From NCBI GenBank assembly GCA_937930535.1, contig CALGKJ010000041.1, forward strand, positions 1 to 42,177: DNA of 42,177 bases, in the 5' to 3' direction. The notes below the pieces were generated by a model. It was not told the DNA's origin. It was given only the letters and a program-made list of their open reading frames with translations, and did not search any database. Shown here piece by piece: positions 31,997-36,273 of the stretch. The stretch's first letter is position 1. Each line of letters opens with the position of its first letter. Both the position numbers and the translations under genes were made by a program. This DNA is from an uncultured Clostridia bacterium (GTDB lineage: Bacteria > Bacillota > Clostridia > Lutisporales > Lutisporaceae).

Positions 31997-32080
31997 ATGC
32001 CAATATTAAATAATAATTGGTATAACCGTATTTTAAAGCCAGTGTGGGGTTATTATAGCTTAGCTGATATAATTAAGTAG
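31997..32080 (+). CDS. Possible TnaC-like leader peptide
   Basis: A 27-codon frame, MPILNNNWYNRILKPVWGYY and seven more residues, ends 11 bp before tnaA. It holds two Trp codons and a W-Y-N...P arrangement loosely like the W-F-N-I-D...P of enterobacterial TnaC, which induces tryptophanase by tryptophan-dependent ribosome stalling. Against it: there is no Shine-Dalgarno, the predicted transcript start is only about 3 nt upstream, and the length of the frame could be chance. Confidence 0.3.
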   Translation: MPILNNNWYNRILKPVWGYYSLADIIK

Positions 32081-32091
32081 GGGGTTGAAAA

Positions 32092-34214: not shown

Positions 34215-34243
34215 TTGCATTTTTCGCTGCTTTGATATAAAAT
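34215..34243 (+). promoter_or_regulatory. Promoter of the riboswitch transcript
   Basis: TTGCAT (34215-34220), 17 nt, TAAAAT (34238-34243); predicted start about 34250, some 19 nt before the aptamer. Confidence 0.5.
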
Positions 34244-34268
34244 AGCTATAAGTGAATAAATGAATTAT

Positions 34269-34343
34269 ACAGCTTGTATATGTTTAGAGATACGGTCTAA
34301 GCGTTTCTACCAGACAGCCATAAATTGTCTGACTACAGGTTGT
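34269..34343 (+). promoter_or_regulatory. Purine riboswitch aptamer, guanine type
   Basis: P1 pairs ACAGCTTGTA (34269-34278) with TACAGGTTGT (34334-34343), allowing two G-U pairs. P2 is TTAGA/TCTAA with loop GATACGG (family GATATGG). The junction GTTTCTACC (34302-34310) is exact. P3 is CAGACA/TGTCTG with loop GCCATAAAT (family CCGTAAA). J3/1 reads GACTA, so the specificity base is C, which selects guanine or hypoxanthine; adenine switches have GATTA. All core elements of the xpt-class aptamer are present. Confidence 0.92.
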
Positions 34344-34381
34344 TTATATAAGGATTTATCTATGTTAATAAATTTGAGTAT

Positions 34382-34423
34382 AAACTCCCTGATTGTGTGC
34401 AATTATGGGAGTTTTATTTTTTC
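34382..34423 (+). terminator. Riboswitch terminator
   Basis: AAACTCCC (34382-34389) pairs with GGGAGTTT (34407-34414), then a T-rich run. The P1 3' strand CAGGTTGTTTA can pair instead with TAAACTCCCTG (two mismatches), a plausible antiterminator, so ligand binding would favour termination. Confidence 0.85.
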
Positions 34424-34752
34424 GCTTTTTAAACAAGTTAATATAATCCTAGAGCTTCAACCCCCAAACCCGGTAATCAACTTTTCCCCCACATATTATA
34501 CCTTATTGTGTTACATTTACAGATTCGTATAATGTGTACACGCCAGAGGTGGTGGTTACACATAAGGAGGATAATCCCGAATCTGATTTGCCCTGGAAGC
34601 TCTAGGCTTTTATATTTTTTGACTTTTAAAAAAATATGTAATAGAATGGTTAATATAACAAACTAAAATAAGGAATTCTAGGCTTATAGAAATAAAATTA
34701 AGCTTTAGGGTTTCTTATTTATATGTACCACTTAATTTGGGAGGGGTTATAA
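34424..34752. other. Non-coding stretch with competing hairpins upstream of the carboxypeptidase gene
   Basis: No gene is supported in these 329 bp. Stem X pairs ACATATTATA (34491-34500) with TATAATGTGT (34528-34537) around 27 nt holding TTACATTTAC. Stem Y1 pairs CAGATTCG (34520-34527) with CGAATCTG (34578-34585) and encloses Y2, TGTGTA (34533-34538) with TACACA (34557-34562). X and Y2 share bases 34533-34537, so they exclude each other. The stretch does not match a riboswitch class I know. A TATAAT at 34528-34533 has a weak -35 (TTGTGT, 34506-34511). Confidence 0.4.
34619..34647 (+). promoter_or_regulatory. Promoter of the carboxypeptidase gene
   Basis: TTGACT (34619-34624), 17 nt, TAGAAT (34642-34647), about 105 bp before the start codon. 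It lies downstream of the riboswitch terminator. Confidence 0.6.
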
Positions 34753-36273
34753 TTGGAAAAAAACTTTGATACCATGGTTGCAGACTTTAAAGACTATATC
34801 AAAAGAATAAAGCAGTACAACGACGCTCTTGGAATTATATTCTGGGACTTAAGAACAGGTGCACCAAAGAAAGGTGCCTCTGACAGAGCAGAGGTTATAG
34901 GAATGCTTTCAACAGAAATGTTTAGGTTGGCAACCTCCGATGAAATGGCAAAATACATAGACTATTTCACCATGTCTGAGCAAAATGAAAAGCTTGATAA
35001 TATAATGAAGGTTCTGGTTAATGAAAGCAAAAGAGAATATGATAAATTTAAGAAAATACCAGAAGCAAAATATAAGGAATATGTAATATTAACCTCTGAA
35101 GCAGAGACAATATGGGAAGAAGCAAAAAATACAAATAACTTTGCATTGTTCAGCCCATATCTCGAAAGAATAGTTAACTTTAATATTGAGTTTATTGATA
35201 TATGGGGCTACAAGGACAATAAGTATAATACACTGCTTGACTACTATGAGCCTGGAATGACTGTAGATAAGCTGGATAAAATATTCGGAGAGCTAAGAGC
35301 AAAGATTGTCCCACTGGTAGCAAGCATTAAGGCTTCGGAATTCCAGCCTGACGATTCAATATTTACCAAGGATTTTGACGTTAAAAAGCAGGAAGAATTC
35401 AGCATATATATATTAGAAAAAATGGGATATGACTTTGAAGCAGGAAGACTTGATGAAAGCGAGCATCCTTTTACAATAGGCATAACTCCCGGAGATGTAA
35501 GAATAACTACTCATTACTACCCAAATTTGTTCAGCAGTGCATTATTTAGTTCAATCCACGAAGGCGGTCATGCTCTATATGAACAAAATATCAGCAATAA
35601 TCTGAATGGTACTACTTTATGTACAGGTACATCAATGGGAATACATGAATCACAGTCAAGATTCTGGGAAAACCTTGTGGGAAGAAGCTATAGCTTCTGG
35701 AAGTGCTATTATCAGGAGCTGTTGAGTATATTCCCTGAACAGTTTGAAGGAATAGCTGTTGAGGAATTCTACAAAGCTATAAATAAGGTTGAGGCATCAC
35801 TTATCAGGGTAGAAGCAGATGAGCTTACATATAATCTGCATGTAATGATAAGATATGAAATAGAAAAGGCTCTTATTAACCAGCAGATAAAGGTTGCCGA
35901 TCTTCCTGAAATATGGAACAAAAAGATGGAGGAATATTTAGGAGTAGTACCTCCCAATGATGCTAAGGGTGTATTGCAAGACGTACACTGGTCTGGCGGC
36001 AGCTTTGGCTATTTCCCATCCTATACACTAGGCAACATATACTCAGCACAGTTCTGCAACGCTATAAGAAAAGAAATGCCTGATTTTGATGAAATGATAG
36101 GCAGAGGCGAAATGCTGAAAATAAAAGAATGGTTAAGCGAAAAGATACACAAGTACGGAAAGCTTTTAACACCTGCTGAGATACTAATGGATGTTACTGG
36201 CGAGGAAATAAACCCAGAATATTTAGTTGAATATTTGGAAAGCAAGTACAAGGCTATTTACAATTTAAAATAA
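34753..36273 (+). CDS. Metallocarboxypeptidase, M32 family (carboxypeptidase Taq)
   Basis: 506 aa cytosolic zinc carboxypeptidase that removes C-terminal residues from peptides. The zinc site is HEGGH (His269-His273), with Glu299 in IHESQSRFWEN as third ligand. The M32 hallmarks HPFTIGITPGDVRITTHYYP, GTSMGIHESQSRFWENLVGR and the C-terminal GSFGYFPSYTLGNIYSAQ are all present. Length is normal for the family. The start is TTG 34753, preceded by GGGAGGGG. It has its own promoter and a strong terminator. Confidence 0.96.
   Translation: MEKNFDTMVADFKDYIKRIKQYNDALGIIFWDLRTGAPKKGASDRAEVIGMLSTEMFRLATSDEMAKYIDYFTMSEQNEKLDNIMKVLVNESKREYDKFKKIPEAKYKEYVILTSEAETIWEEAKNTNNFALFSPYLERIVNFNIEFIDIWGYKDNKYNTLLDYYEPGMTVDKLDKIFGELRAKIVPLVASIKASEFQPDDSIFTKDFDVKKQEEFSIYILEKMGYDFEAGRLDESEHPFTIGITPGDVRITTHYYPNLFSSALFSSIHEGGHALYEQNISNNLNGTTLCTGTSMGIHESQSRFWENLVGRSYSFWKCYYQELLSIFPEQFEGIAVEEFYKAINKVEASLIRVEADELTYNLHVMIRYEIEKALINQQIKVADLPEIWNKKMEEYLGVVPPNDAKGVLQDVHWSGGSFGYFPSYTLGNIYSAQFCNAIRKEMPDFDEMIGRGEMLKIKEWLSEKIHKYGKLLTPAEILMDVTGEEINPEYLVEYLESKYKAIYNLK

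What the first reader, a model, noticed from the sequence alone, without database searches (positions are those of the whole stretch)
34215..34752. Complete guanine riboswitch with no evident target gene
Seen: promoter, aptamer with exact GTTTCTACC and C-type J3/1, and a terminator, followed by 330 bp with no gene; the next gene is an M32 carboxypeptidase with its own promoter (34619-34647). Known: guanine switches normally govern purine uptake or synthesis genes. Either a purine gene was lost here, the switch controls carboxypeptidase by read-through, or the terminated short RNA has its own use.
Basis: partly seen in the sequence, partly recalled or inferred. Interest (0 to 1): 0.65.

Follow-up and report, generated by a model that had tools for sequence, protein, structure and literature searches.

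The report
Guanine riboswitch gating a noncoding RNA
A guanine-sensing RNA switch that seemed to control nothing sits, in seven related bacterial species, ahead of a strongly conserved small-RNA-like element instead of (or, in one species, in addition to) a purine gene, which suggests that guanine shortage here switches on a regulatory RNA rather than an enzyme.

Summary
The riboswitch is real (RF00167, 83.2 bits, window 34254-34355), with promoter, terminator and no protein gene before the M32 carboxypeptidase at 34753. The "empty" 330 bp is not empty: 34448-34606 holds an element with 11-nt complementary arms (CCTAGAGCTTC / GAAGCTCTAGG), a C-rich motif (CTTTTCCCCCAC) and a U-rich tail. A covariance model finds it in 7 of 22 family genomes (E at most 3e-18; next unrelated hit 7e-4), in two genera, always after a purine riboswitch and before M32. 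Its arms are 93-98% identical between genera, while fourfold sites in the adjacent gene are 31-46% identical. An outgroup has the same neighbouring genes but neither riboswitch nor element. Only one congener has xpt between them; the window genome has no xpt. M32 keeps its own conserved promoter.

Best reading: an OFF-type guanine riboswitch gates a noncoding RNA made when guanine is scarce. It would work like the B12-riboswitch RNAs EutX and Rli55 but is not shown to be related. "Purine gene lost" is partly right (xpt is in the congener) but does not explain why the switch persists in six species without xpt. Transcription, ligand binding and targets are untested; a search for conserved targets found none.

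The parts
34215..34243 (+). Promoter of the riboswitch unit, TTGCAT-N17-TAAAAT
   Evidence: Read from the sequence; TTGCTT-N17-TATTAT at the same place in congener G001. In the sister genus TTGCAA-N17 spacing is likewise present.
34254..34355 (+). Purine (guanine-type) riboswitch aptamer; core P1-P3 about 34268-34345
   Evidence: RF00167, 83.2 bits, E 1.2e-13; 91% identical to the G001 aptamer and clusters with the five sister-genus aptamers at the same site.
34346..34423 (+). Expression platform: intrinsic terminator AAACTCCC..GGGAGTTT with U-tract (34382-34423); candidate antiterminator pairs the P1 3' strand (CAGG..GTTTATAT) with GTATAAAC..CCTG
   Evidence: Fold -45.1 kcal/mol, z -4.8. CCTG (CCTTG in G008) complementary to the P1 3' strand lies in the terminator 5' arm of all seven species. 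The antiterminator itself is inferred; it is the predicted fold only in G008.
34434..34447 (+). Segment just before the element; conserved within each genus (AGTTAATATAAYC here, AGCTATCTGCA in the sister genus)
   Evidence: 86% identity within each genus, 47% between.
34448..34606 (+). Conserved noncoding-RNA-like element: arm 34448-34458, arm 34596-34606, between them C-rich motifs (34461-34465; CTTTTCCCCCAC 34481-34492) and a hairpin (34520-34527 / 34578-34585)
   Evidence: Covariance model R2: 7 of 22 family genomes, E 1.1e-27 to 3.4e-18; arms 98% and 93% identical between genera; region fold z -4.4. No Rfam family.
34607..34622 (+). U-rich tail after the element (second terminator)
   Evidence: CTTTTATATTTTTTGA; T-rich tail after the 3' arm in all seven species.
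34619..34647 (+). Separate promoter of the M32 carboxypeptidase gene, TTGACT-N17-TAGAAT
   Evidence: TTTTGAC(T/A)T..TAATA(A/G)AAT also in G001, the five sister-genus species and outgroup G003, which lacks the riboswitch.
34753..36273 (+). M32 carboxypeptidase (Peptidase_M32), the next gene; judged not to be the switch's target
   Evidence: PF02074, E 2.4e-188.

Best explanation
The unit is a metabolite-gated noncoding RNA gene. SHOWN by sequence: promoter, guanine-type aptamer, intrinsic terminator, then a conserved C-rich element with complementary arms and a U-rich tail, with no protein gene, before an M32 gene that has its own promoter; kept in two genera. INFERRED: with guanine (or hypoxanthine) bound, P1 is stable, the terminator forms and only a roughly 170-nt leader is made. 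When guanine is scarce the P1 3' strand pairs with the terminator's 5' arm, polymerase reads through, and the conserved element is transcribed and ends at its own U-tract. INFERRED, weaker: the element acts in trans by presenting unpaired UUUUCCCCCAC, either to G-rich ribosome-binding sites (as RoxS or FsrA do) or to a protein. In congener G001 the same transcript also carries xpt, so xpt mRNA and the element would be co-regulated there.
For: Riboswitch 83.2 bits. Element found in 7 of 22 family genomes by model R2 with a clean gap in E-value (3.4e-18, then 7e-4 for unrelated places), always downstream of an RF00167 hit and upstream of M32. Arms 98%/93% identical between genera and TTTTCCCCC shared by all seven, while fourfold sites of the neighbouring M32 gene are 31-46% identical between genera. 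No shared 8-mer in any of 200 shuffles. Outgroup G003 has the same flanking genes but neither riboswitch nor element. The aptamers show no decay: 72-83 bits in the six species without xpt, against 65 for the window genome's own guaB switch. C-rich motif unpaired in all five sister-genus folds. Terminator 5' arm keeps complementarity to the P1 3' strand in all seven.
Against: No RNA data of any kind. No compensatory double changes support the arms or inner hairpin in the sister genus (0 pairs); the arms are conserved as sequence. In six of seven species the equilibrium fold keeps the terminator even with P1 blocked, so the antiterminator must be kinetic. Exact search for complements of GUGGGGGAAAA found no conserved target. 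The inner parts differ greatly between genera (24% identity). In the window and G001 folds the last two residues of CCCCCAC are mostly paired.
Confidence: 0.6

Rival explanations
1. Orphaned switch: xpt stood here in the ancestor, was deleted in this species (and separately in the sister genus), and riboswitch plus 3' terminator are leftovers.
For: G001 has xpt exactly here, with 91% identical aptamer and matching sequence up to the terminator and again from the xpt stop codon on. The site aptamers cluster near xpt-type aptamers (weak supports). Window genome has no xpt.
Against: Six species without xpt keep a high-scoring aptamer and the element although neutral sites are saturated; a leftover should have decayed. 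The element is conserved better than the aptamer between genera.
Confidence: 0.2
2. The switch controls the M32 carboxypeptidase by read-through of both terminators.
For: M32 is the next gene in all seven species, on the same strand.
Against: M32 has its own conserved promoter, present also in the riboswitch-less outgroup, and a second U-tailed hairpin element separates them. No known purine link of M32 (general knowledge); no paper in the held library has 'guanine riboswitch', 'carboxypeptidase' and 'Clostridi' together.
Confidence: 0.1
3. The element is only a conserved transcription terminator or insulator (or a DNA-level protein site) protecting the M32 promoter; the switch is retained for the short terminated RNA or as a transcriptional pause/insulator.
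For: The element ends in a U-tract and lies directly before the M32 promoter; both arms are conserved as sequence without covariation, as expected of a DNA site.
Against: An insulator does not need an invariant unpaired C-rich loop or invariant arms; terminator 1 in the same unit is free to vary (platform 42% identity between genera).
Confidence: 0.1

Closest known systems
Guanine riboswitch, guanine-I type (Rfam RF00167)
   Same: Aptamer architecture, J2/3 GUUUCUACC, C-type J3/1, transcription terminator, predicted OFF logic.
   Different: No purine gene downstream in six of seven species; a conserved noncoding element follows instead. Sister-genus copies have lost the C54-G72 pair and vary at A73 (mapped by hand to the B. 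subtilis xpt numbering).
B12-riboswitch-controlled sRNAs EutX (Enterococcus) and Rli55 (Listeria) (PMC7602753)
   Same: A riboswitch whose ligand prematurely terminates transcription of a downstream trans-acting RNA; RNA made when ligand is absent.
   Different: Different ligand class; no sign of the paired hexaloop ANTAR site (recalled motif) that captures EutV; here the conserved feature is a C-rich motif with a basal stem.
C-rich sRNAs of Firmicutes, RoxS/RsaE and FsrA (PMC10433868)
   Same: Unpaired C-rich stretches and a terminal hairpin with U-tail.
   Different: Preceded by a riboswitch; no Rfam match; no target identified.
SAM-I riboswitch controlling an antisense RNA (described in Barrick and Breaker 2007, PMC2258182)
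   Same: Metabolite switch with OFF logic on a noncoding transcript.
   Different: There the RNA is antisense to the operon beside it; here nothing is encoded on the opposite strand of the element.

Membership tests
Purine/guanine riboswitch (RF00167) | Three-stem aptamer matching the covariance model over its full length | tested here: met
   1-102 of 102, 83.2 bits, gathering 37
Purine/guanine riboswitch (RF00167) | Ligand-contact residues of the guanine type, including C in J3/1 | tested here: met
   GUUUCUACC and GACUAC in the window; criterion as in PMC9295807 and PMC11477304
Purine/guanine riboswitch (RF00167) | Binds guanine | not testable with these tools
   Needs in-line probing
Purine/guanine riboswitch (RF00167) | Lies upstream of a purine gene (usual, not strictly defining) | tested here: not met
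   No purine gene in the window or in five sister-genus species; xpt only in G001
Riboswitch-controlled sRNA (kind: EutX/Rli55) | Conserved noncoding sequence with own terminator directly downstream of the riboswitch terminator | tested here: met
Riboswitch-controlled sRNA (kind: EutX/Rli55) | Ligand-dependent transcript and action in trans | not testable with these tools
   No RNA-seq or genetics available
EutX/Rli55 family proper | B12 riboswitch and EutV-binding ANTAR hairpins | tested here: not met
   Riboswitch is RF00167, not cobalamin; sister-genus hairpin loops are about 10-11 nt, not paired hexaloops (ANTAR motif recalled)
RoxS/RsaE/FsrA-type C-rich sRNA | Unpaired C-rich seed | tested here: met
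   P(unpaired)=1.0 for CCCCCAC in five sister-genus species; first four C's 0.7-1.0 in window and G001
RoxS/RsaE/FsrA-type C-rich sRNA | Pairs with G-rich ribosome-binding sites of target mRNAs | tested here: inconclusive
   Exact complement GTGGGGGAAAA gives 0-2 sites per genome besides the element, none orthologous or at a clear RBS; shorter pairing not tested
6S RNA (RF00013) | Matches the 6S covariance model | tested here: not met
   Two 6S genes elsewhere in the genome; the element has no match

The most novel reading that the evidence does not exclude
A previously undescribed family of guanine-riboswitch-gated, trans-acting C-rich small RNAs: guanine limitation induces the sRNA, which represses a set of mRNAs, making it a purine-limitation counterpart of EutX/Rli55 with base pairing instead of protein capture.
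Probability: 0.4. Interest if true: 0.75.

Novelty: new variant of a known kind. Interest (0 to 1): 0.6.

Why it matters
[quoted passage not shown] Here comparative genomics separates the two: in six species without the purine gene the switch and the element after it have both been kept. If the RNA is confirmed, the guanine switch, one of the best studied riboswitches, would directly control a regulatory RNA, and the unit would be a clean test case for metabolite-gated sRNAs.

Tried and rejected
6S RNA as the gap element: the genome's two 6S genes are elsewhere. Known Rfam family: none, even at E up to 10 for the window or E up to 1 for a sister-genus copy. Mobile or repeated element: a single copy in the genome. 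Match to a nucleoside ABC transporter gene in G016 as an sRNA target: the window's own genome has no such site within 3 mismatches, so chance. GAPDH-like gene in JAHJRI010000489.1 sharing 20 bases: chance, coding. Class-wide low-scoring model hits (E 0.003-0.01): no riboswitch beside any of them, so chance. Perfect 10-nt complement between the element (TTCAACCCCC) and the RBS of the tryptophanase-like gene at 32080-32089: not conserved in G001 (GGGAGGGGCAG), so not claimed. xpt phylogeny to decide gain versus loss: inconclusive.

Full report
OBSERVATION. Rfam places one purine riboswitch in the window, 34254-34355 on the + strand, full length, 83.2 bits. A promoter (34215-34243) precedes it and an intrinsic terminator (34382-34423) follows. 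The next protein gene is an M32 carboxypeptidase at 34753 with its own promoter at 34619-34647.

THE GAP IS NOT EMPTY. Folding 34440-34615 gives -50.7 kcal/mol, z -4.4. It has 11-nt complementary arms, CCTAGAGCTTC (34448-34458) and GAAGCTCTAGG (34596-34606), followed by CTTTTATATTTTTT. The element is a single copy in the genome and belongs to no Rfam family.

CONGENER. The only other held genome of the genus, G001 (record CALJSV010000196.1, 'uncultured Clostridia bacterium'), has the same order: SbcC-like, tryptophanase-like, DJ-1, purine riboswitch, terminator, then xpt (TIGR01744, 252.9 bits), then the element, then M32. The aptamer is 91% identical. About 80 nt of the element (5' part) are nearly identical although the flanking proteins are only 70% (DJ-1) and 76% (M32) identical. 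The window genome (97% complete) has no xpt anywhere: its best hits are distant phosphoribosyltransferase-fold proteins at 26-30% identity. The window sequence resumes its match to G001 at the xpt stop codon (TAAACAAGTTAATATAA against TAAAAAAGTTAATATAA). So either xpt was deleted in the window's species or gained in G001.

SISTER GENUS. A model of the element found a hit in G002 next to a purine riboswitch. Reading the loci shows that all five held species of a sister genus have SbcC, (DJ-1 in two), purine riboswitch, terminator, a short version of the element, M32, and no xpt at this site. Four of the five have xpt-like genes elsewhere; the one in G002 is interrupted by a stop or frameshift. 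A second model (R2) finds the element in exactly these seven genomes of 22 in the family, E 1.1e-27 to 3.4e-18, with other genomic places at 7e-4 or worse (weaker hits on the opposite strand of the same element excluded). In 391 genomes of the class nothing else convincing appears, and the weak hits have no riboswitch beside them. The outgroup G003 has SbcC, DJ-1 and M32 in the same order with neither riboswitch nor element. Riboswitch and element are thus present or absent together in the loci examined.

CONSERVATION. Between the genera the arms are 98% and 93% identical, the aptamer 70%, the platform 42% and the interior of the element 24%. Fourfold degenerate sites of M32 are 31-46% identical between genera. 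CTACAGGTT (P1 3' strand) and TTTTCCCCC (element) are the only 9-mers shared by all seven units; none of 200 shuffles shared even an 8-mer. This is strong purifying selection on arms and C-rich motif. No compensatory changes are seen, so the stem itself is supported by complementarity and energy, not by covariation.

MECHANISM. The terminator's 5' arm keeps a stretch complementary to the P1 3' strand in all seven species (CCTG or CCTTGTAG), the usual design of an OFF switch. At equilibrium the antiterminator wins only in G008; elsewhere it would have to form during transcription. With guanine, transcription would stop near 34423; without it, the element would be made and end near 34615. The M32 promoter is conserved even where the riboswitch is absent, so M32 is unlikely to be the target. 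In the sister genus the C-rich motif sits in the loop of an A/U stem and is fully unpaired, as in the seed regions of RoxS and FsrA (PMC10433868). A search for exact complements of the motif found no conserved mRNA target, so action in trans is an inference.

PRECEDENT. B12 riboswitches control the sRNAs EutX and Rli55 with the same logic (PMC7602753). Barrick and Breaker raised the possibility that unplaced riboswitches control trans-acting RNAs (PMC2258182). No paper found in the held library describes a guanine switch on a noncoding RNA; that library is incomplete.

HISTORY. Site aptamers of both genera cluster together, nearest to xpt-type aptamers (supports moderate). The unit may have begun as an xpt leader with a 3' element and lost xpt twice, or xpt may be a gain in G001. 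The data do not decide, and the conclusion does not depend on it.

Noticed in passing
L090, L091, L092, L095, L099 (riboswitch of the sister genus at this site): These aptamers keep the ligand contacts but have lost the first P3 pair (C54-G72) and vary at A73 and in J1/2 (UAUAGG), unlike xpt- or guaB-linked aptamers of the same genomes; ligand preference may differ.
   Followed up: partly
window 32080-32089: The RBS of the tryptophanase/tyrosine phenol-lyase-like gene (GGGGGTTGAA) is a perfect 10-nt complement of the gap element (34456-34465); not conserved in the congener.
   Followed up: yes
L094 and L098 (G002:C5, G014:C305): Purine riboswitches upstream of genes that look like xanthine dehydrogenase subunits (FAD-binding, 2Fe-2S, molybdopterin; judged from the translated start only) in the sister genus, an association PMC9295807 calls atypical for guanine switches.
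   Followed up: no
L012 6061-6161 (own genome, contig C183): The genome's second purine riboswitch precedes a guaB (IMP dehydrogenase)-like gene and has an unusual J3/1 (GACATGAG), only 65 bits.
   Followed up: no
window 34670-34710: A further inverted repeat (CTAGGCTTA..TAAGCTTTAG) lies in the M32 5' untranslated region of the window only.
   Followed up: no
G000 contigs C167 and C91: Two 6S RNA genes in the genome.
   Followed up: no
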